Assembly (NCBI GenBank): GCA_030145845.1
Contig: JAIXHJ010000002.1
Span: 310,001-374,000 of the forward strand
DNA: 64,000 nt
Direction of reading: 5' to 3'
Origin: Pseudomonadota bacterium
Lineage (GTDB): Bacteria > Pseudomonadota > Gammaproteobacteria > Pseudomonadales > Oceanobacteraceae
The notes below the pieces were generated by a model that saw only the letters and a list, made by a program, of their open reading frames with translations, was not told the origin of the DNA and searched no databases. Both the position numbers and the translations under genes were made by a program. The stretch's first letter is position 1; each line of letters opens with the position of its first letter. Of this stretch, positions 21,529 to 55,575 are shown piece by piece.

Positions 21529-23442
21529 ATGGGCAACACAATGGCAGTTGCGGATATGGAAGCTGTGGTGTTTCCGCGGGTGGAGGAAGACGTGTTACTG
21601 AAAGCAGAAGGTCTCAATCTGGATGTCAGTATCGGTGGTAAAACCTGCCGTGTTTTACGCGACATCAGCTTTACCCTGCCGCGTGGCAAAACCCTCGGTC
21701 TGGTCGGTGAATCCGGCGCCGGAAAAAGTATGCTGGGGCGGATTATTTCACGCCAGATTCCGGCGGGTTTTTCGGTCAGCTCCGGTTCGCTGATGTTCGA
21801 TGGCGAAGACCTGTTGCAGGCTTCCGCCCGTCAGCACCGTGACTGGCTGGGTAAACGTATTGCGTTTATTCCGCAGGAACCGATGACGGCGCTGAACCCG
21901 GTGCTGACCATTGGCCAGCAGTTTACCGAACATATGCTGCGCTTCGGTGTGCCGGCGGCTGAATGCGAAGCGCGTATTATTCAGGCGCTGGAAGAAGTGC
22001 TGCTGCCGGAGCCGGCGGCGCTGCTGAGTAAATACGCTTTCCAGCTGTCCGGTGGTATGTGTCAGCGGGTAATGATTGCCATGGCCTTTGCCAGTGAACC
22101 GGATCTGGTGATTTCCGATGAAGCCACCACCGCGCTGGATGTCAGCACCCAGGCGCAGGTGGTGCGTCTGTTGCGTGACCTGCAGGCACGTAAAGGCACC
22201 AGCGTTATTTTTGTTACCCACGATATGGGGCTGGCCACACACGCCTGTGATGAAGTGACGGTGCTGTATGCCGGGGAAATGATGGAAACGGCGCCGGCGC
22301 GGAATATTTTTCAGCACGCTTCGCACCCCTATACCCGTGCCCTGCGTGATGCCACGCCGCGTCTGAAAGGCAGCGTTATTCCGTTGAAAACCCTGGAAGG
22401 ACAGATGCCGGGGGTGGAAAGTTTTGCCGATATTCCCGGCTGCCGTTTTGCCAGCCGCTGCGATTATGCCGCGGCCAGTTGCAACGCCGGTGTGCCGGAG
22501 CGGGTCAGTGTCAGTCATGGCCACAGTGTCCGTTGTGCGCGTTATGCCGAACTGGAAACGCTCACGGCGGAACAGCACAGCAGCAGCGGCACGCATCAGC
22601 CGGGCCATGCTTTCAGTGCGCGCAGTGTGCTGCAGGCCAGCGGTATCAGTAAGGTTTATCCGGCCGCTAACCGCCGGCAGAAAGACAAGCTGGCGCTGGC
22701 GGCGATGGACTTTACCATCGCGCCGGGGGAATTTATCGGTATTGTCGGTGAAAGTGGCAGCGGTAAATCCACTCTGGGGCGGATGCTGATGGGGCTCGAA
22801 GATCTGACCTCGGGCAGCATTGATATTAACGGCAAAACCCTGGGCAATGATGAGGCCAGCTGGCAGCGGCGGATTTCGCTGGTGCAGATGATTTTTCAGG
22901 ATGCACGTTCGGCGCTTAATCCGCGCCGCAAGGTCGGCCAGCTGTTGACGCAGGTGATGGACAGCCGTCCGCATCAGCGCCTCGAACGCAATATGCGCAT
23001 GAAAGAACTGGCGCGCGATGTGGGGCTCGCTGAGCAGTCGGTGCAGCGTTATCCGGCGCAGTTGTCCGGTGGCCAGCGTCAGCGCGTGAATATCGGCCGC
23101 AGCCTGTGTGATCTGCCACAGATTCTGATCGCCGACGAAATTGTCTCCGGTCTGGATGTCTCGGTACAGGCGCAGATTATGAATCTGCTGCTGGAATTAC
23201 GCCGTGAACATAAAGTGGCACTGGTGCTGATTTCGCACGACCTGAGTGTGGTGCGTTATCTCTGCAGCCGGGTGCTGGTGATGAAAAACGGCGAAGTGAT
23301 TGAAAGTGGCGAAACCGAAAAAGTGCTGTCCGATCCGCAGCATCCTTACACCCGTCAGCTGATTGCCGCGGTGCCGCCGACCGACCCGGATGCGGTCTGG
23401 CCGGGGGCGTCTTTTACCGATAAAGAAGCCGGGGTGTTATGA
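21529..23442 (+). CDS. fused double ABC ATPase, DppD-DppF type
   Basis: A 637-residue protein carrying two complete ATPase domains, as in GsiA/YejF-type importers. Domain 1 has Walker A GESGAGKS, signature LSGGMCQRV and LVISDEATTALDVS. Domain 2 has GESGSGKS, LSGGQRQRV and ILIADEIVSGLDVS. Between them is the oligopeptide-type linker with cysteines (GCRFASRCDYAAASCNAG), which in the family may hold an Fe-S cluster. In domain 2 the residue after the Walker B Asp-Glu is Ile rather than the usual Pro or Ala. ATG 21529 is preferred because GGGAGG lies about 7 bp upstream. It powers the importer formed with the two preceding permeases and overlaps the next gene by 4 bp. Confidence 0.93.
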   Translation: MGNTMAVADMEAVVFPRVEEDVLLKAEGLNLDVSIGGKTCRVLRDISFTLPRGKTLGLVGESGAGKSMLGRIISRQIPAGFSVSSGSLMFDGEDLLQASARQHRDWLGKRIAFIPQEPMTALNPVLTIGQQFTEHMLRFGVPAAECEARIIQALEEVLLPEPAALLSKYAFQLSGGMCQRVMIAMAFASEPDLVISDEATTALDVSTQAQVVRLLRDLQARKGTSVIFVTHDMGLATHACDEVTVLYAGEMMETAPARNIFQHASHPYTRALRDATPRLKGSVIPLKTLEGQMPGVESFADIPGCRFASRCDYAAASCNAGVPERVSVSHGHSVRCARYAELETLTAEQHSSSGTHQPGHAFSARSVLQASGISKVYPAANRRQKDKLALAAMDFTIAPGEFIGIVGESGSGKSTLGRMLMGLEDLTSGSIDINGKTLGNDEASWQRRISLVQMIFQDARSALNPRRKVGQLLTQVMDSRPHQRLERNMRMKELARDVGLAEQSVQRYPAQLSGGQRQRVNIGRSLCDLPQILIADEIVSGLDVSVQAQIMNLLLELRREHKVALVLISHDLSVVRYLCSRVLVMKNGEVIESGETEKVLSDPQHPYTRQLIAAVPPTDPDAVWPGASFTDKEAGVL

Positions 23443-24251
23443 GGCGTTCAATTCCGGCCCGGCGTCTGCCGGCGCTGTTTATCGGCCATGGCTCACCATT
23501 GAATGCGGTGGAAAAAAATGTCTACACCGACAGCTGGTCATGTCTGGGGGGAGGCATTGGAAAACCGCGCGGCATTCTGGTGATTTCTGCCCACTGGCTG
23601 ACCGACGGCATTGAAGTGACGGCGATGGAACAGCCGCGTACCCTGCATGATTTTCATGAGCAGTTTCCGCAGCTGATGGATTTCCGTTATCCGGCACCGG
23701 GCAGCAGTCAGCTGGCCGCACGGGTACAGGAATTACTGACCGGGGAAAATGTCCGCTACAGTCAGAGCTGGGGTTTTGATCAGGGTGTCTGGTCAGTGCT
23801 GAATCACCTGTATCCGGCGGCCGATGTGCCGGTGGTGCAGATGAGTATTCATGTCCGACAGTCACTGGCCTGGCATTACGCCACCGGTCAGAAACTGCGT
23901 GCCCTGCGCGATGAGGGGTATCTGCTTATCGGTAGTGGTAATCTGGTCTATAACCCGATTATGGCCGATTATCAGCACGAAAAGTTTGCTTATGACTGGG
24001 CGCTGAATTTCCAGAAAAAAGTCGCGACCCATATCCTCAACGGCAATGATGAAGCGCTGCTTGATCTGGCGGCACTGGGTAAAGAAAGCGGGCTGGCTGT
24101 GCCTGCTAACGATCATTTCCTGCCACTGATTTACACCCTGGCAACCCGGGATGTGGATGACGACGCCGTCGAATTTATCACCCCCGATTGCATTTATGGC
24201 TCGGTGAGTATGTTGAGTCTGGCGCTGTGGCCGTCGGCAGATCCGGGCTGA
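23439..24251 (+). CDS. DODA-family protein lacking two active-site histidines (copy 2)
   Basis: A 270-residue member of the same DODA/LigB family as the gene at 13978, with metal-site histidines H17 (FIGHGSP), H52 (SAHW) and H226 (NDHFLPL) retained. Two histidines that copy 1 keeps are replaced: the DHG motif reads D114-Q115-G116, and the GTGNIVHN motif reads GSGNLVYN with tyrosine at 171. The second of these positions is the residue reported as important for catalysis in plant and bacterial DODA. The gene overlaps the ATPase gene by 4 bp and so is the last gene of the importer operon. It may catalyse a different reaction, act on another substrate or be a non-catalytic relative; it is not obviously degenerate. 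Confidence 0.85.
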   Translation: MRRSIPARRLPALFIGHGSPLNAVEKNVYTDSWSCLGGGIGKPRGILVISAHWLTDGIEVTAMEQPRTLHDFHEQFPQLMDFRYPAPGSSQLAARVQELLTGENVRYSQSWGFDQGVWSVLNHLYPAADVPVVQMSIHVRQSLAWHYATGQKLRALRDEGYLLIGSGNLVYNPIMADYQHEKFAYDWALNFQKKVATHILNGNDEALLDLAALGKESGLAVPANDHFLPLIYTLATRDVDDDAVEFITPDCIYGSVSMLSLALWPSADPG

Positions 24252-24276
24252 CAGATAAAAAATACCGGCAGCTGGC

Positions 24277-24800
24277 CACTGCTGTTCCACAGTTTTAACG
24301 AAATCTGTTTTCTGTAGACGAGGTTTACATCCGCAACGCCCAATGCCTCGCAGGGGAACTTATCCCCTTGCCGGCGGGCGGACCCCAGCTTTTCGCTTTC
24401 TGGAGCGTGATCCTCATTCTCTCGATTTTTCCTGGCCACGCGCCCATGCGACATCCCTGTCGCTGCGCGCTCGCCGGGCGTCCATGCCCGGCGGGCCGGA
24501 AAAATCATCATTCATTTCGGTGCTCCCAGAGGCGAAGGAGTGGCAGCCGTGACGCCGCTTTTCAATATCGCTCTGTCGCTGAATGCTGATCAGCGACATG
24601 ACATTCAACTTGGTTGTGAATCGTATAAACGAGCCAGACAGCGCGAAGCGGGCCTGTTTTTGCTCCTGCAAAACAGGCATTTCCGCCATCCATGGCGGTC
24701 AGGATTGCGCCCGTCCGGCGAGAGGGGTAAGTCCCCTCTATGAGAAAGGGGACTGGGATTTTTCACAAACATTTAAATAAAAGTTAGTGGGACAGCAGTG
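24277..24800. mobile_element. TIR-bounded non-autonomous element, copy 1 (524 bp)
   Basis: The element runs from CACTGCTGTTCCAC to the inverse at GGGACAGCAGTG, a terminal inverted repeat of about 14 bp with one mismatch. The interior is shared with copy 2 at 52322-52993 over most of its length (for example 24360-24600) but has no transposase and no credible gene. It sits inside a former bidirectional terminator: AAAAAATACCGGC at 24257-24269 on the left and GCCGGTATTTTTTT at 24808-24821 on the right are complementary halves now over 500 bp apart. A degenerate 10-bp direct repeat (GCAGCTGGCC / GCAGTCAGCC) flanks it. It lies between convergent genes. IS4-type mobilisation is a guess from TIR and duplication size. 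Confidence 0.7.
24652..24702 (-). repeat. 51-bp double-hairpin unit nested in element copy 1
   Basis: Two hairpins in tandem (GCCTGTTTTTGC...GCAAAACAGGC and CCGCCATCCATGGCGG). Its reverse complement is identical over 51 bp to 52432-52482 in copy 2, where the unit occupies a different site of the host element. It is therefore mobile or recombining independently of the larger element. Confidence 0.75.
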
Positions 24801-24836
24801 GCAGTCAGCCGGTATTTTTTTATCGCTATGGCCCGC

Positions 24837-25814
24837 TTACAGACTCAGAATCTCGGTTTCCTGTTTCATGCTTTCCACCTGCTGGCGGCGGTATTCCCGT
24901 GGCGTGATGCCAAATGCAGCGCGGAAAGTGCGGCTGAAATGGCCAGCGTCGTTAAAGCCCCAGCGGAAGCAGATATCCGATACCGACAGGTGGCTGTATT
25001 CCGGGTTTCCCAGTTCACAGCGGCAGCGTTCCAGACGGCGTGTGCGTACGTAATTGACGAAACTGATGCCACCGGATTCAAACAGTTTCTGAATGTAGCG
25101 TGATGACACCTTGTATTTCTCCGCCACCATATTCAGGGACAATGACGGGTTGGCAAGGTTGGCATCAATCAGCTGGCAGATGCGTTTGAAATGCAGGATT
25201 TTAGCGGTACTGCCGAATTCCTGGACGCCGCTTTCGTGAATCAGATTGCTGATGACAAACTCTGACATGGCAATTTCAACCGGCCGCAGCATGGAGGTTT
25301 CCAGCTCGTCAATATTATTGCTCAGAGAGGTCAGCATACTGGCGAAGACCTGGTTGATACCGGATTCGCACGGCAGGTAACCAACGTCGATCAGGTTCGG
25401 ATTGAGCAGGCGGGTGTTGACCAGACTGTCGGGGATTTTGACGTACAGAATACGGAAATCCGATTTTACCGACAGCGTCATATCGACCCCGGTGGGAGCA
25501 TAAATAATCGAACCGGTTTCTGCCGGCAGTTCAGCACCACGGTATTTCAGTGAGAACTCACCTTCCAGCAGCAGAGCCAGCCAGAAGGGATAGGGCTGAT
25601 CACCGGATTTGCCGGAAATTTCCAGTGGCGAGCCGGACATAACGGAAAACTCAATGCCCTGAGGGGTGTAAACACAGCTGATATCACCATGAAACTGATT
25701 ATCACTGCAGCCGAACTGGCAGGACGGCATAAAGAGTTTGTCCATTGCTCGCTGCCAGATGCGGGCGCGTTCCTTAACGGAACAATCATCGGTTGAAACT
25801 TTCCACGAAGTCAT
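24837..25814 (-). CDS. AraC-family transcriptional regulator
   Basis: A 325-residue regulator. The N-terminal part (about 1-200) resembles the AraC-binding-like domain of FeaR/NahR-neighbour regulators of aromatic catabolism. The C-terminal 100 residues hold the two helix-turn-helix motifs, ending FNDAGHFSRTFRAAFGITPREYRRQ, the signature of the family. It lies between the importer/DODA operon and the formamidase genes, and is the best candidate for controlling the catabolic island. The gene ends just beyond the inserted repeat, so its original terminator has been split. The inducing ligand is unknown. Confidence 0.92.
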   Translation of the reverse strand: MTSWKVSTDDCSVKERARIWQRAMDKLFMPSCQFGCSDNQFHGDISCVYTPQGIEFSVMSGSPLEISGKSGDQPYPFWLALLLEGEFSLKYRGAELPAETGSIIYAPTGVDMTLSVKSDFRILYVKIPDSLVNTRLLNPNLIDVGYLPCESGINQVFASMLTSLSNNIDELETSMLRPVEIAMSEFVISNLIHESGVQEFGSTAKILHFKRICQLIDANLANPSLSLNMVAEKYKVSSRYIQKLFESGGISFVNYVRTRRLERCRCELGNPEYSHLSVSDICFRWGFNDAGHFSRTFRAAFGITPREYRRQQVESMKQETEILSL

Positions 25815-33012: not shown

Positions 33013-33311
33013 GCCGCTCTGAGCGGAGCCGGGCATGGTCCGGACTCCGCCTCCTCTGTGTCTGCAGCTATATGCTTTGTCAGTAATGTCCTGTTGCTGA
33101 CGGCGGGTTCACCTTCCCGGCAGCAGACACTTTTCCTCCTGACGTCGTTTTTCTTTCCTGCTGAATCAGTGACTTGCCTGTCATCAGCCACCGTTCTGCC
33201 CCAGTTGCGATTGTCGCCTAATGCCAGCTTTGTAATGTCCGCCAGCGGCGGCTGACTTTGCGGTGCCCGGCTGCGCCGTAGACTGGTGGCAACCATGACG
33301 GAGGATATGCG

Positions 33312-48579: not shown

Positions 48580-49341
48580 ATGGGTCTGGCAAAACGCATT
48601 ATTCCCTGTCTTGATGTTGATAAGGGCCGCGTGGTCAAAGGCGTGAACTTTGTCGGTATCCGCGACGCCGGTGACCCGGTGGAAATCGCCAAACGCTATA
48701 ACGATCAGGGTGCCGATGAAATTACTTTCCTCGATATTACCGCCAGCCATGAGGGCCGGGAGACAACGGTACATATGGTGGAAGCCATCGCTGAGCAGGT
48801 GTTTATCCCGCTGACGGTCGGTGGTGGTATCCGCGAGCTGGATGATATCCGCCGCATGCTCAATGCCGGGGCCGATAAGGTCTCCATCAACTCGGCGGCG
48901 GTGTATAACCCGGAATTCGTAAAGGCGGCTTCGGAGAAATTCGGCGCGCAGTGCATCGTGGTGGCGATTGATGCCAAGCAGGTTGATGACCACTGGGAAA
49001 TCTTTACCCATGGTGGCCGCAAGCCAACCGGCATTAACGCCGTTGAATGGGCGGTGAAGATGGAGCAGTACGGCGCCGGAGAAATCCTGCTGACCTCCAT
49101 GGACCGCGACGGGGTGAAGTCTGGTTTCGATCTGGGCGTGACCCGGGCCATTGCTGATGCGGTGAACATCCCGGTGATTGCTTCCGGTGGTGTCGGTAAC
49201 CTCGATCATCTGGTGGAAGGGGTGAAAGAAGGACACGCCGATGCGGTACTGGCGGCCAGCATTTTTCACTTTGGTGAATACACGGTGCAGGAAGCCAAGC
49301 AGCATATGGCTGCTGCCGGCATTGAGATGCGTCTCGACTGA
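48580..49341 (+). CDS. hisF: imidazole glycerol-phosphate synthase, cyclase subunit
   Basis: A 253-residue TIM barrel partner of HisH. It begins [37 protein letters not shown] with the catalytic aspartate 11, with [15 protein letters not shown] holding the second. It uses HisH-derived ammonia to close the imidazole ring. It is the last gene of the operon and ends at a bidirectional terminator. Confidence 0.98.
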
Positions 49342-50875: not shown

Positions 50876-52279
50876 ATGACAGCTCTGACTCAGGAAGCCC
50901 TGATCGAACGGTTATCGGCGATTGTCGGTGCCGATAAGGTACGTACGGATGCCGATTCTCTGGAAACCTTCGGTAAGGACTGGACCAAAATCTACGAGCC
51001 AAAGCCGACGGCTATCGTTTTCCCGAAAACGACGGAACAGGTGCGGGATATAGTTCTGCTGGCTAACGAACACCGGCTGGCGCTGGTGCCGTCCGGCGGC
51101 CGCACCGGTCTGAGCGCCGGGGCGGTTGCCGCCGACGGTGAGATCGTCGTGGCGTTTGACTATATGAATCAGATCACTGATTTCAACGCCGTGGACCGCA
51201 CTGTGAAATGTGGTGCCGGTGTGGTGACAGAACAGCTGCATAACTATGCGGAAGAGCAGGGTCTGTTTTATCCGGTCGACTTCGCCTCCTCCGGTTCCAG
51301 TCAGATCGGCGGTAATATCAGCACCAACGCCGGCGGTATTAAAGTGATCCGCTGGGGCATGACCCGTGACTGGGTGGCTGGTCTGACCGTGGTGACCGGG
51401 CAGGGTGATATTCTCGAGCTGAACAAAGATCTGGTGAAGAACAATACCGGTTATGACATGCGTCAGCTGTTTATCGGGGGGGAGGGAACGCTGGGCTTTA
51501 TCACTGAGGCCACCATGCGTCTGACCCGTCAGCCACGCAATCTGACGGTGCTGGTGCTGGGTGTACCGGAGCTGGATGACGTGATGAAAGTGCTGAACCA
51601 GTTCCAGAGTCAGATGGATCTGACCGCGTTTGAATTCTTCTCCGATAAGGCCATGCAGAAAGTGCTGGCACGCGGCGATGTGCCGGCTCCCTTTGAAACC
51701 AGCACCGATTTCTATGCCCTGATTGAGTTTGAAGCCGTGACTGAGGCCGATATGGATCTGGCTATGACCGTCTTCGAACAGTGCCTGGAGCAGGGCTGGG
51801 TGATGGACGGGGTGATCAGTCAGAGTGAAACTCAGGCGGCGAACCTGTGGCGTCTGCGTGAAGATATCTCCGAGACGATTTCCCACTGGACGCCCTATAA
51901 AAACGATATTTCCGTGGTGGTATCCAGAGTGCCGCCGTTCCTGCGCGATATTGATGAAATCGTGACCCGGGAATATCCGGATTTTGAGATTATCTGGTTC
52001 GGCCATATCGGTGACGGTAACCTGCACCTGAATATCCTCAAACCGGATGACCTGCCGAAAGACGAGTTCTTTGCCCGCTGTGCCAATGTGTCGAAGTGGG
52101 TGTTTGAGATTGTGGAAAAATACGCCGGCTCGGTCTCAGCAGAGCATGGTGTTGGCCGCACCAAGAAACCTTATCTTGAATACACCCGTTCGAAAGAAGA
52201 GCTGGCGTATATGCGCGCGGTGAAAGCGGTGTTCGATCCGAACAATGTGATGAACCCGGGTAAGCTGGTGGATCTGTAA
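50876..52279 (+). CDS. FAD-linked dehydrogenase, D-2-hydroxyglutarate type
   Basis: A 467-residue FAD_binding_4/GlcD-type flavoprotein, with VPSGGRTGLSAGAVAADGEIVVAFDYMNQI for FAD binding, GSSQIGGNISTNAGG, and the C-terminal HIGDGNLHLNILKPDD, SAEHGVGRTKKPYLEY and DPNNVMNPGKLVDL. It belongs to a group that oxidises D-2-hydroxy acids, including D-2-hydroxyglutarate and D-lactate. It is divergent from serA across 240 bp. In Pseudomonas stutzeri such an enzyme re-oxidises the D-2-hydroxyglutarate formed by SerA and drives serine synthesis, so this identity is favoured by context; D-lactate dehydrogenase is the alternative. Confidence 0.85.
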   Translation: MTALTQEALIERLSAIVGADKVRTDADSLETFGKDWTKIYEPKPTAIVFPKTTEQVRDIVLLANEHRLALVPSGGRTGLSAGAVAADGEIVVAFDYMNQITDFNAVDRTVKCGAGVVTEQLHNYAEEQGLFYPVDFASSGSSQIGGNISTNAGGIKVIRWGMTRDWVAGLTVVTGQGDILELNKDLVKNNTGYDMRQLFIGGEGTLGFITEATMRLTRQPRNLTVLVLGVPELDDVMKVLNQFQSQMDLTAFEFFSDKAMQKVLARGDVPAPFETSTDFYALIEFEAVTEADMDLAMTVFEQCLEQGWVMDGVISQSETQAANLWRLREDISETISHWTPYKNDISVVVSRVPPFLRDIDEIVTREYPDFEIIWFGHIGDGNLHLNILKPDDLPKDEFFARCANVSKWVFEIVEKYAGSVSAEHGVGRTKKPYLEYTRSKEELAYMRAVKAVFDPNNVMNPGKLVDL

Positions 52280-52431
52280 CGCGGTCGTCGCTGCAGGCAA
52301 TAAAAAAAGGAGGCTCAGGCCCACTGCTGTCCTACAGTTTTAACGAACTCTGTTTTCTGTAGACGACGTATACACCTGCAACGCCCAATGCCTCGCAGGG
52401 GAACTTCTCCCCTTGCCGGCGGGCATTTATA

Positions 52432-52482
52432 CCTGACCGCCATGGATGGCGGAAATGCCTGTTTTGCAGGAGCAAAAACAGG
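52432..52482 (+). repeat. 51-bp double-hairpin unit nested in element copy 2
   Basis: It comprises CCGCCATGGATGGCGG and GCCTGTTTTGC...GCAAAAACAGGC. It is identical to the reverse complement of 24652-24702, but here sits in the left third of the element rather than near its right end. Copy 1 has only a few bases at this position. Confidence 0.75.
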
Positions 52483-52718
52483 CCCAGCTTTTCGCTTTCT
52501 GGAGCGTGATCCTCATTCTCTCGATTTTTCCTGGCCATGCGCCCCTGCGACATCCCTGTCGCTGGGCATCCATGCCCGTCGGGCCGGAAAAATCATCATT
52601 CATTTCGGCGCTCCCAGAGGCGAAGAAGTGGCAACCTTGACGCCGCTTTTCAATACCGCTCTGTCTCTGAATATTGGTCAACGACATGACATTCAATCTG
52701 GTTGTAAATCGTATAAAC

Positions 52719-52871
52719 AGGCGGTGAGGCTGCGATAAAACAGCGCCTCTGGGCTCGCCGCAGAAAGCGCCGATATTTCCGACCTGCCCGCAGGGACCCG
52801 GGCAAGTGACCCCGGCCATGGATGGCCGATGGGTCACGGGGTCAGGAAATATCAAGGTTTCAAGGATAAAC
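52719..52871. mobile_element. 153-bp nested hairpin insertion in copy 2
   Basis: Absent from copy 1 and flanked by the direct repeat ATAAAC (52713-52718 and 52866-52871), where copy 1 has a single ATAAAC. It contains nested inverted repeats: GATATTTCC/GGAAATATC (about 52770 and 52845), GTGACCC/GGGTCAC (52807-52813 with 52831-52837) and, at the core, GGCCATGGATGGCC (52814-52827). It has no coding capacity and resembles a REPIN or MITE-type insertion. Confidence 0.65.
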
Positions 52872-53031
52872 GGGCCAGACAGCGCGGAGCGGGGAGGTAG
52901 CCCGTCCGGCGAGAGGGGTAAGTCCCCTCTATGAGGACAAGGGGCCTGGGATTTCTTACAAACATTTAAATAAAAATTTGTCGGACAGCAGTGTAGGCTC
53001 AGGCCTCCTTTTTTATTGCTGTTATCCCGGA

Positions 53032-55575
53032 TCAGAACAGCTGTTCCGGGATGACGTCTTCCTCGCCACCGAAGCCGTTGCTGCTGTCACCGGCCACCGG
53101 TACCTTGACGGTCTGCTTGGGGACATTCTCTTCGCGGAAGTATTCGAACATGGCATCTTCCTGACCGGGCGCGGCCAGCAGGCCGGTTTCCGGGTCAATG
53201 CGCACGCTGACAATGCCTTCCGGCTGTTCGAACGGGCGTTCCGGCACATCTTTAAGCGCGGTCTCCATATAGTCGACCCAGATCGGCAGCGCGGTGTTGG
53301 AACCGTAAGCCCAGCGGCCGAGGGTAACCGGCTGATCGAAGCCGACCCAGACGGTGGTCACCAGATCCGGGCTGAAGCCGGAAAACCAGGCGTCTTTCTG
53401 ATCATTGGTGGTACCGGTTTTGCCGGCAATGTCGCGGCGCTTGAGTGCCAGTGCACGCTGACCGGTCCCCAGACGGACCACATCGCGCAGCATGCTGACC
53501 ATCAGGAAATGCACGCGCTTGTCCATGACCCGTGGTGCAGCATTGATTCCGGCGGCGCCATCAGGGGTGCTGGCATCGGTCAGCAGGTTTTCTTCCGTCA
53601 GTTGTTGTTCTGCCTGGCTGAGGTTGTCTGCGGACTCCTGTTGGGGGGCGTTTTCGCAGTCGCGGCAGACCACAGCCGGGTTGGCTTCAAACAGCAGCTG
53701 ATGTTCATCGTCTTCAATGCGGCTGATCAGATAGGGATTGACCGCGTAACCGCCATTGGCAAGGACGCAGTAGCCGGTGGCCAGCTCCATCGGCGTTACC
53801 GCGGAGGCGCCGAGTGCCAGTGACAGGTCGGTGTTCAGTTTATGGCGCGGGAAGCCGAACGGTACGATGTAGTCGACGGCTTTGTGCGGCCCGACCTGTT
53901 TGAGAATGCGGATGGATACCAGATTCTGCGAGCGGTAGAGGGCGCGGCGCAGGCGGGTGGGGCCGTTAAATTTGCCGTTATGGTTTTCCGGACGCCAGGT
54001 GTTTTCCAGACTGCTGTCCTCAAACACCACCGGCGCATCGTTGATGATGCTGGCCGGGGTGAAGCCATTGGCCAGTGCGGAGCTGTAGATAAAAGGTTTG
54101 AAGGAGGAACCGGGCTGACGGTCAGCCTGAATGGCACGGTTGAACTGGTTGCCGGCGTAGGCGAAACCACCGACCAGAGCCTGTACCGCGCCATCGTCCG
54201 GGCGCAGGGATACCAGTGCACCTTCAACCTCCGGCAGCTGCGCCAGACGCAGGCCATCCGGTGTGTCTTCGAGCCAGATCCGGTCGCCGGCGCTGACAAC
54301 ATCCGCAGGGGATTGCGGCTCGGCGCCGATGACATTGACGTTGATGTACGGCTTGGCCCAGGTCATGGCAGCAAATGGCAGCCAGTGTTCACCGTTGCCG
54401 GTGAAATACCAGATGCCATCCTCTCTGACACGGGATACTACCGCCGGGCTGATCAGCCCCATGTCATCCAGTGCGTTCAGTTGTTTGTGCCATTGCTCAT
54501 AAGAGGCCGGCCAGTCGGTGTCATAAGCCGGGTCGGCTTTGTTCAGCCACTCAGCCAGCAGTGGGCTGTCACTGACCGTGAGGGTGACCGGTTTGCTGGA
54601 CGGTTTCGGCTTGCGGTAGCCGTGATCCTGATCGTATTTCAGCAGGCCGCTCTGCAGGGCGCGGTTGGCGGCTTCCTGGCGTACAGAGCTGAGTGTGGTG
54701 TAGACGTTATAGCCATCCGTGTAGGCGCCGTCACCATAGCGGTCAATCATGTCGCGGCGCACCATTTCCGCCACATACGGAGCGTTCACTTCCGATACGG
54801 CACCGTGATAGCGGGCGGTTACCGGGGCGCTGGCGGCTTCTTCGAACTCTTCCTCTGTGATCATGTCCAGAGTGCGCATGCGGGCCAGTACATAGTTACG
54901 GCGATCGATGGCCCGGTCCGGGCTGTTGATCGGGTTGGCGGCCGACGGTGCCTGCGGCAGGCCGGCGATCATGGCCAGCTGAGCCAGATTCAGTTCGCGG
55001 ATTGATTGGCCGTAATAAACCTGGGCGGCAGCTTCAATACCGTAAGCCCGCTTGCCGAGGTAGATCTTGTTGATATAGAGCTCGAGAATTTCTTCTTTGC
55101 TGAGGGACTGCTCAATCTTCAGGGCCAGCAGGATCTCAGTGAATTTGCGGGTAAAGGTCTTTTCGGATGACAGGTAATAGTTCTTGGCAACCTGCATGGT
55201 GATGGTACTGCCACCGGATTTCTTACGGCCGGTGCGGATCAGTTCGACCACGGCGCGGGCCAGACCCTTAATATCAATGCCAAAGTGTTCAAAGAAGCTG
55301 TCATCTTCTGAAGCCAGCAGCGCATTAATGAACTGGCGGGGGGTTTCTTCGTAAGTAATGGGGGTGCGGCGCTTTTCCCCGAACTCGCTGATAAGGCGGC
55401 CGTCGGCGGTAAATACCCTTAATGGTGTCTGTAATTCCACATCGCGGAGTTCGGCGGTATCCGGCAGACCCGGAGCCAGCATTAAATATATGCCCAGACT
55501 GACAATTCCTGTGCCCGCAACGATAGACAAAACAAGCCAGGAGAGGAAGCGGAGTAGCGGGTGTGACTTAGTCAT
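53032..55575 (-). CDS. mrcA: penicillin-binding protein 1A
   Basis: An 847-residue bifunctional peptidoglycan synthase. It has a short cytoplasmic tail, a membrane anchor (LSWLVLSIVAGTGIVSLGIYLML), then the GT51 glycosyltransferase (ASEDDSFFEHFGIDIKG and RKSGGSTITMQVAKN). A linker/OB-like region follows, then the transpeptidase with active-site SSFK in RQPGSSFKPF, SxN-type SQN in YRSQN, and KTGTT. It is anchored in the inner membrane and acts in the periplasm. It is divergent from the pilM operon, as in Pseudomonas. The terminator after its stop has been split by the element at 52322. Confidence 0.97.
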   Translation of the reverse strand: MTKSHPLLRFLSWLVLSIVAGTGIVSLGIYLMLAPGLPDTAELRDVELQTPLRVFTADGRLISEFGEKRRTPITYEETPRQFINALLASEDDSFFEHFGIDIKGLARAVVELIRTGRKKSGGSTITMQVAKNYYLSSEKTFTRKFTEILLALKIEQSLSKEEILELYINKIYLGKRAYGIEAAAQVYYGQSIRELNLAQLAMIAGLPQAPSAANPINSPDRAIDRRNYVLARMRTLDMITEEEFEEAASAPVTARYHGAVSEVNAPYVAEMVRRDMIDRYGDGAYTDGYNVYTTLSSVRQEAANRALQSGLLKYDQDHGYRKPKPSSKPVTLTVSDSPLLAEWLNKADPAYDTDWPASYEQWHKQLNALDDMGLISPAVVSRVREDGIWYFTGNGEHWLPFAAMTWAKPYINVNVIGAEPQSPADVVSAGDRIWLEDTPDGLRLAQLPEVEGALVSLRPDDGAVQALVGGFAYAGNQFNRAIQADRQPGSSFKPFIYSSALANGFTPASIINDAPVVFEDSSLENTWRPENHNGKFNGPTRLRRALYRSQNLVSIRILKQVGPHKAVDYIVPFGFPRHKLNTDLSLALGASAVTPMELATGYCVLANGGYAVNPYLISRIEDDEHQLLFEANPAVVCRDCENAPQQESADNLSQAEQQLTEENLLTDASTPDGAAGINAAPRVMDKRVHFLMVSMLRDVVRLGTGQRALALKRRDIAGKTGTTNDQKDAWFSGFSPDLVTTVWVGFDQPVTLGRWAYGSNTALPIWVDYMETALKDVPERPFEQPEGIVSVRIDPETGLLAAPGQEDAMFEYFREENVPKQTVKVPVAGDSSNGFGGEEDVIPEQLF

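What the first reader, a model, noticed from the sequence alone, without database searches (positions are those of the whole stretch)
24277..24800. Transposase-less element targets the loop of a bidirectional terminator
Seen in sequence: a 524-bp element with ends CACTGCTGTTCCAC / GTGGGACAGCAGTG splits AAAAAATACCGGC (24257-24269) from GCCGGTATTTTTTT (24808-24821), which would pair as one terminator between convergent genes. The same happened independently at 52322. Two of two copies hitting terminator hairpins suggests the unknown transposase recognises DNA hairpins or terminators. Inference: IS4-like mobilisation, from the 10-11-bp target duplications. The split may change termination of both flanking genes.
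Basis: partly seen in the sequence, partly recalled or inferred. Interest (0 to 1): 0.8.

Follow-up and report, generated by a model that had tools for sequence, protein, structure and literature searches.

The report
Terminator-seeking jumping DNA element
A short mobile DNA element without its own transposase, and the IS4-family insertion sequences that share its ends in other bacteria, sit mostly in the middle of DNA signals predicted to stop transcription, probably because their transposase recognises the paired A-run and T-run of these signals, a habit that would let this branch of jumping DNA land at gene ends rather than inside genes.

Summary
The own genome has 13 full copies; 12 sit in a terminator-like hairpin. 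It has no matching transposase, but a congener carries a complete 1,276-bp IS with the same ends and an IS4-family transposase. Relatives in Oceanospirillales, Cellvibrionaceae, Marinobacter, Alcanivorax and Acinetobacter behave alike. Of 92 deduplicated insertions, 87 have an A-run before or a T-run after the target (15.6% of random positions), 66 have both (1.0%), and 71 have a hairpin plus a run (0.9%). Target duplications are mostly 10 bp, centred on the hairpin, with A- and T-runs mirrored about them. Distant relatives with other ends show no such runs (0 of 4). A target profile trained without the own genome ranks the two window sites 1st and 4th in the window. Refinement: the A-run/T-run frame is more constant than the hairpin. 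Terminator targeting is known for IS1272 (another family, with deletions) and palindrome targeting for ISRm22 (IS4 family), so this is a new variant of a known kind. No transposition or termination was measured.

The parts
24277..24800 (+). copy 1: 524-bp transposase-less element (MITE) with terminal inverted repeats at 24277-24291 and 24786-24800
24257..24276 (.). left half of the split terminator at copy 1 (A-run, GC arm, decayed target duplication)
24801..24821 (.). right half of the split terminator at copy 1 (decayed target duplication, GC arm, T-run)
52322..52993 (+). copy 2: 672-bp element of the same family
52302..52321 (.). left half of the split terminator at copy 2; target duplication AGGCTCAGGCC at 52311-52321
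52995..53014 (.). right half of the split terminator at copy 2; target duplication AGGCTCAGGCC at 52995-53005, then arm and T-run
23439..24251 (+). gene whose 3' end faces copy 1 (LigB-type ring-opening dioxygenase domain)
24837..25814 (-). convergent gene on the other side of copy 1 (AraC-type regulator)
50876..52279 (+). gene whose 3' end faces copy 2 (FAD-linked oxidase)
53032..55575 (-). convergent gene on the other side of copy 2 (penicillin-binding protein with transglycosylase and transpeptidase domains)

Best explanation
The element is a transposase-less sequence whose ends match those of a complete IS4-family insertion sequence in a congener, and it sits at predicted intrinsic transcription terminators, probably because that transposase recognises the terminator's symmetrical A-run / GC-rich core / T-run arrangement and would cut about 10 bp apart around its centre. 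Shown: the shared ends, the IS4-family transposase, the 9-11 bp duplications centred on the hairpin apex, uninterrupted empty sites for three insertions of relatives, and the absence of the pattern in the four scored distant relatives. Inferred: that the transposase itself supplies the specificity, that it reads the A-run/T-run pair (as duplex DNA, with the hairpin helping or simply coming along), and that the own genome's copies moved when a partner transposase, now lost or unassembled, was present. The likely benefit to the element is a supply of harmless sites at gene ends.
For: Ends: the congener's IS has CATTGCTGTCCCACAG / CTGTGGGACAGCAGTG and a DUF4372 + DDE_Tnp_1 transposase, 255 bits to NCBIfam IS4_1 against a cut-off of 115. 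Targets: of 92 deduplicated insertions 87 have a run on at least one side, 66 on both, 72 a hairpin, 71 hairpin plus run; at 33,285 random positions 15.6%, 1.0%, 5.4%, 0.9%. Symmetry: in 50 exact 10-bp sites A is 0.76-0.94 at 5-9 nt outside the left edge of the duplication, T 0.82-0.98 at 5-8 nt outside the right edge; in-register A+T of at least 7 of 10 in 81 of 92 against 1.0% of 33,300 random positions. Run over hairpin: 71 of 72 hairpin targets have a run, while unoccupied non-ORF hairpins in the same DNA split 87 with and 141 without (its hairpin test is stricter, 7 of 8 at a fixed centre); of 20 targets without a good hairpin 16 have a run and 8 both. Prediction: a profile trained on 50 sites outside the own genome puts site 2 first and site 1 fourth in the window. 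Empty sites. Context: 49 convergent, 38 tandem, 1 divergent of 88 by simple ORF calls.
Against: Register does not separate run midpoint from hairpin centre (sd 0.62 against 0.54 on the same 54 sites, 3 discordant sites that do not agree), so reading of the runs rests on frequencies, not position. Twenty-one of 92 sites lack hairpin plus run, and 5 have no run at all (L100, L101, L148, L195, L248). One own copy (L043) fits poorly. One insertion (L244) lies at the 3' end of an annotated gene. Eleven copies were left out because their two flanks do not match. The control clade is 4 scored sites, one of which has a chance hairpin. Survival bias against insertions in genes is not removed by any of these data.
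Confidence: 0.72

Rival explanations
1. The transposase recognises the hairpin itself, extruded as a cruciform or read as a GC-rich palindrome, and the A- and T-runs are bystanders of terminators.
For: 72 of 92 targets have a hairpin of at least 6 of 8 pairs; the duplication centre matches the hairpin centre with sd 0.54 on 54 sites, slightly tighter than the run midpoint (0.62); ISRm22 of the IS4 family inserts at a palindrome axis (PMC1525189, passages).
Against: 71 of 72 hairpin targets also have a run although 141 of 228 unoccupied non-ORF hairpins do not; 16 of 20 targets without a good hairpin still have a run.
Confidence: 0.25
2. Insertion is close to random between genes, and purifying selection has removed all copies except those at gene ends, where terminators happen to be.
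For: Nearly all copies lie outside genes, and no experiment with unselected insertions is at hand.
Against: Random non-coding insertion would also hit promoters and sequence next to terminators; 1 of 88 is divergent, the runs are phased to the duplication edges, a profile from other genomes ranks the window sites 1st and 4th, and four distant relatives in comparable genomes show no runs.
Confidence: 0.04
3. Target choice is coupled to transcription termination (paused or leaving RNA polymerase, or supercoiling between convergent genes), not to the DNA sequence.
For: The targets are predicted terminators, about half of them between convergent genes (49 of 88).
Against: Targets with both runs but no good hairpin, which would terminate poorly, are used too (8 of 92), and the strict mirror symmetry of the runs is more natural for DNA reading. 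Not tested directly.
Confidence: 0.12
4. The hairpin arms and runs belong to the element and were brought along, so that each copy supplies its own flanking terminator.
For: Nearly every junction shows the same layout of run and arm.
Against: Arm sequences differ from copy to copy while the element is conserved; joined flanks with one repeat copy exist without the element at 100% identity for two sites and 92% for a third; 7 of 8 congeners have an intact terminator at site 2.
Confidence: 0.01

Closest known systems
ISAbe18 (IS4 family, Acinetobacter)
   Same: Name given by annotation to transposases 59% identical to the congener's. The plasmid copies and relatives looked at have the same end type, 1.27-kb size and, mostly, terminator targets.
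   Different: No description of its target choice was found in the searches (where the name itself had 0 occurrences in the listed papers); it is complete, while the window copies are transposase-less.
ISRm22 (IS4 family, subgroup IS4Sa) in REP sequences of Sinorhizobium meliloti
   Same: IS4-family element that inserts at the axis of a palindromic extragenic sequence (PMC1525189, passages read; PMC2266710, sections read).
   Different: Target is one repeated sequence family with 6-bp repeats, not terminators of varied sequence; sequence relation to this clade not tested.
IS1272 / TnSha1 (IS1182 family, staphylococci)
   Same: Inserts into hairpins, several of them confirmed terminators, with little primary sequence preference (PMC4923244, passages read).
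   Different: Another transposase family; deletes part of the stem and makes no target duplication, whereas here there is a 9-11 bp duplication and no loss.
YPAL / RU-2 of Yersinia
   Same: Small repeat element without transposase whose targets span or adjoin dyad symmetry (PMC2229807, passages read).
   Different: About 168 bp, 3-26 bp duplications, internal inverted repeats; the passages read name no partner IS and no terminators.

Membership tests
IS4 family (partner element) | Y(2)R(3)E(6)K motif and DDE spacing D(60-110)D(100-150)E (PMC2266710) | tested here: met
   invariant Y287, R290, E294, K301 and D125, D191, E294 in alignment A1 of 12 transposases; NCBIfam IS4_1 255 bits
IS4 family (partner element) | single-ORF transposase and target duplication of about one helix turn | tested here: met
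   one ORF between the ends; 71 exact duplications of 9, 10 or 11 bp
IS4Sa subgroup | ends CA------T, size 1150-1750 bp, duplications 8-10 bp (PMC2266710 Table 1) | tested here: inconclusive
   ends CACTGCTGT fit and size about 1.27 kb fits, but duplications reach 11 bp (7 of 71 exact) and the IS4Sa transposase itself is only 21% identical over part of the length; ISfinder subgroup data not available
MITE of this IS clade | no transposase, ends of a known IS, target duplications, several copies | tested here: met
   13 copies of 519-769 bp without transposase in the own genome, shared 15-bp ends with the congener's IS; mobilisation by it is inferred. No interior homology to the IS was tested
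IS1272-type terminator insertion | deletion of part of the stem and no target duplication (PMC4923244) | tested here: not met
   duplications present; empty sites match joined flanks without loss for two sites
REP-targeting IS (ISRm22 type) | targets belong to one repeated sequence family | tested here: not met
   the 92 targets have different arm sequences after removal of identical ones

The most novel reading that the evidence does not exclude
A whole branch of IS4-family transposases finds intrinsic transcription terminators by reading, as duplex DNA, a dyad of an A-run and a T-run set four base pairs outside a 10-bp core, so that an RNA signal is recognised at the DNA level as a safe landing site, and MITEs built on its ends now split terminators across marine gammaproteobacteria.
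Probability: 0.5. Interest if true: 0.8.

Novelty: new variant of a known kind. Interest (0 to 1): 0.7.

Why it matters
It gives a case in which a DDE transposase appears to pick a functional feature found in nearly every bacterial genome rather than one repeated sequence. Relatives near 40% identity without the habit make the determinant mappable. The target profile already predicts where such elements land (2 of the 5 best places in the window are occupied), and a terminator-directed transposase would be a useful tool for placing DNA at gene ends in laboratory bacteria. Whether split terminators cause read-through is an open question about the cost of such elements.

Tried and rejected
Rejected: that the flanking arms belong to the element (empty sites). 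Rejected: that terminator insertion is a general IS4 trait: relatives near 40% identity with other ends (mostly CACTCTTGTCCAAATT) have 9-10 bp duplications without runs (0 of 4 scored; L213 and L227 looked alike by eye).

Led nowhere or undecided: the empty-site search for copy 1 (1 of 8 congeners has the neighbour gene, in another context). Separating hairpin centre from run midpoint by register (3 discordant sites). A flank search of L230, whose left side looks like a fragment of another IS. Promoter and terminator scans over the two elements found nothing above shuffles (one terminator-like match across the left junction of copy 1). A first boundary script printed nothing because of a pattern error. 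Paper searches were narrow (0 and 2 papers). YPAL was considered from memory as a terminator element; the passages read say dyad symmetry only.

Rows dropped before the count of 92: of 144 loci given to, 27 gave no end pair by the pattern, 6 lay at a contig edge, 7 were distant relatives (4 used as control, 3 with uncertain ends), 11 had flank repeats with more than 3 mismatches (L036, L103, L153, L157, L158, L160, L176, L178, L194, L196, L221), and 1 was a duplicate (L247). Copies were chosen for fetching by their ends, not their flanks: 12 of 14 end matches of G003, 3 stretches of G002, 5 of G008, 40 of G005 (which has 103 end matches); copies in G001 and G006 and most of G007 were not looked at. 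The named loci are the best 80 of 177. The tree used 47 of 68 translated transposases, its label was distance and not target type.

Full report
WHAT IS THERE. Two transposase-less elements lie in the window at 24277-24800 and 52322-52993, each splitting a terminator-like hairpin between convergent genes. Copy 2 keeps an exact 11-bp target duplication centred on the hairpin apex; that of copy 1 has decayed.

THE OWN GENOME. A search with copy 1 and a check of the ends found 13 full-length copies of 519-769 bp in the 4.08-Mb assembly. They share a core and differ by whole modules. Twelve of 13 have a hairpin with an A-run before and a T-run after: 11 of the 12 that pass the repeat filter, plus L036, which fails the filter but has stem 5 of 8 and both runs. 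The exception is L043, with a T-run only. No DDE_Tnp_1 or DUF4372 domain was found in the own assembly, which is 95% complete.

THE PARTNER. In congener G007 a complete IS of 1,276 bp has the ends CATTGCTGTCCCACAG and CTGTGGGACAGCAGTG and one transposase gene with DUF4372 and DDE_Tnp_1 domains. NCBIfam names it IS4 family (255 bits against a cut-off of 115), and the YREK motif is invariant in 12 aligned relatives. That locus is contained in a public record of an Oceanospirillaceae MAG, PAJK01000076.1, and the closest named relatives are from Thalassolituus and Amphritea, so the window probably comes from Thalassolituus or a near relative; this is inferred. No interior similarity between the short elements and the IS was tested; the link is the shared ends and the shared target habit.

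GENERALITY. One scan of named genomes gave the best 80 of 177 loci. Elements with ends CACTGCTGTCCCA occur in Thalassolituus, Amphritea, Marinobacterium, Marinobacter, Cellvibrionaceae, Zhongshania, Alcanivorax, Pseudohongiella and many Acinetobacter species. With the own genome, four congeners (G002, G003, G005, G008) and plasmid copies, 92 deduplicated insertions could be reconstructed (dropped rows are under Tried and rejected). A run of at least four A before or four T after the target was present in 87 of 92, both in 66, a hairpin with at least 6 of 8 pairs in 72, hairpin plus run in 71. At 33,285 random positions in the same loci (coding and non-coding together) the rates were 15.6%, 1.0%, 5.4% and 0.9%. 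The five sites with no run are L100, L101, L148, L195 and L248. Duplications among the 71 exact ones were 10 bp in 50, 9 bp in 14 and 11 bp in 7. In G005, with 103 end matches, 16 of 20 one-sided contig-end copies have a T-run.

GEOMETRY. In 50 exact 10-bp sites A reaches 0.76-0.94 at 5-9 nt outside the left edge of the duplication; T reaches 0.82-0.98 at 5-8 nt outside the right edge and 0.58 at 9. An in-register A+T count of at least 7 of 10 holds for 81 of 92 sites and 1.0% of 33,300 random positions. The centre of the duplication matches the hairpin centre (sd 0.54, 54 sites) and the run midpoint (sd 0.62 on the same sites, 0.77 over 64), so register does not tell the two apart. Frequency does: among unoccupied hairpins in non-ORF parts of the same DNA and the window, 87 have a run and 141 do not (ORFs called by length only, hairpin test stricter than), yet 71 of 72 hairpin targets have one; and of 20 targets without a good hairpin 16 have a run and 8 both. 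In the gap between the runs, 65 of 69 targets with both measure 14-19 nt, against 39 of 51 unoccupied run-framed hairpins, so targets are only somewhat narrower than terminators at large.

EMPTY SITES. For copy 2, all 8 congeners have the neighbour gene, none shows the element in the stretch displayed after its stop codon, and 7 have an uninterrupted A-run/hairpin/T-run there; G004 does not. The hairpin sequences differ between species, so this shows a terminator kept in place, not the identical target. For three Acinetobacter plasmid insertions the joined flanks with one repeat copy occur uninterrupted in other plasmids: 100% identity over all 250 bases for L244 and L248, and 92% with an 18-base length difference for L247. 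L244 and L248 are among the sites without a good hairpin, and L244 lies at the 3' end of an annotated gene.

CONTROL CLADE AND TREE. Relatives near 40% identity, from Brocadia, Planctomycetota, Rokubacteria and Deltaproteobacteria, have other ends (mostly CACTCTTGTCCAAATT) and duplications without runs: 0 of 4 scored, one of which has a chance hairpin. In a maximum-likelihood tree of 47 transposases the 13 distant rows, which include the Pseudodesulfovibrio plasmid copy L232, fall on one side of a branch with support 100/99. The control is small, and the Pseudodesulfovibrio copy has a T-run close to its right end, which I did not score.

PREDICTION. A profile trained on 50 sites outside the own genome (congeners included) was run over the window with both elements and one repeat copy left out. 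Site 2 ranked first and site 1 fourth after merging neighbours; five places scored above 20, two of them occupied. For 12 of the 13 own targets at most 14 of 62,749 window positions score as high (best of several alignments per target); for L043 it is 51.

GENE CONTEXT AND EFFECT. By simple ORF calls, 49 of 88 insertions lie between convergent, 38 between tandem and 1 between divergent genes; 4 could not be called. One own copy (L032) is called tandem because of a spurious ORF. Folding 28 nt before the T-run gives a mean of -8.4 kcal/mol for empty and -6.0 for filled sites over 153 junction strands; 121 and 69 reach -6. This suggests weakening, not proof of lost termination.

WHAT IS KNOWN. 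IS1272/TnSha1 of the IS1182 family targets terminator hairpins with deletion and no duplication (PMC4923244, passages read). ISRm22 of the IS4 family inserts at the axis of REP palindromes (PMC1525189, passages read). The IS4 survey notes conserved target arms in some IS4 and IS4Sa elements; the word 'terminator' does not occur in its text (PMC2266710, term search and two sections). YPAL targets dyad symmetry (PMC2229807, passages read). Ten full-text searches listed no paper that I recognised as reporting terminator targeting by IS4-family elements; I read passages of 7 papers, the library holds open-licence papers only and ISfinder was not available, so this is not proof of absence. From memory only: IS10 and IS231 also prefer dyad-symmetric targets.

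VERDICT. The likely mechanism is choice of intrinsic terminators by the transposase, with the A-run/T-run frame as the best-supported cue; hairpin recognition and coupling to transcription remain open.

Noticed in passing
L031-L043; window about 24370-24730 and 52420-52910: The copies are modular: a stretch around GCCTGTTTTGCAGGAGCAAAAACAGGC lies near the left end in some copies and inverted near the right end in others, and short pieces of about 45-60 bases of it recur in other genera.
   Followed up: no
L153, L157, L158, L160, L176, L178, L194, L196, L221: Copies whose two flanks do not match look like halves of two different terminators on most sides, as expected from recombination between copies or adjacent deletion.
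   Followed up: no
L084 2194-2222, L085 1766-1800, L086 285-315: Right end of the complete IS carries a perfect hairpin around GAGCCTCA..TGAGGCTC followed, on the opposite strand, by a T-rich stretch, so the element may carry its own terminator against transcription from the right.
   Followed up: no
congener G005: 103 matches to the 15-base end, many of them about 70-85 bases from a contig end, so the element family is in high copy there and seems to break the assembly.
   Followed up: partly
window, ranks 2, 3 and 5 (scan positions 48836, 11634, 19337): Three unoccupied terminator-like sites score above 20 with the target profile and are predicted landing sites.
   Followed up: no
L228 (viral contig): One relative of the IS lies on a viral contig, with a T-run hairpin on the one flank that is held.
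   Followed up: no
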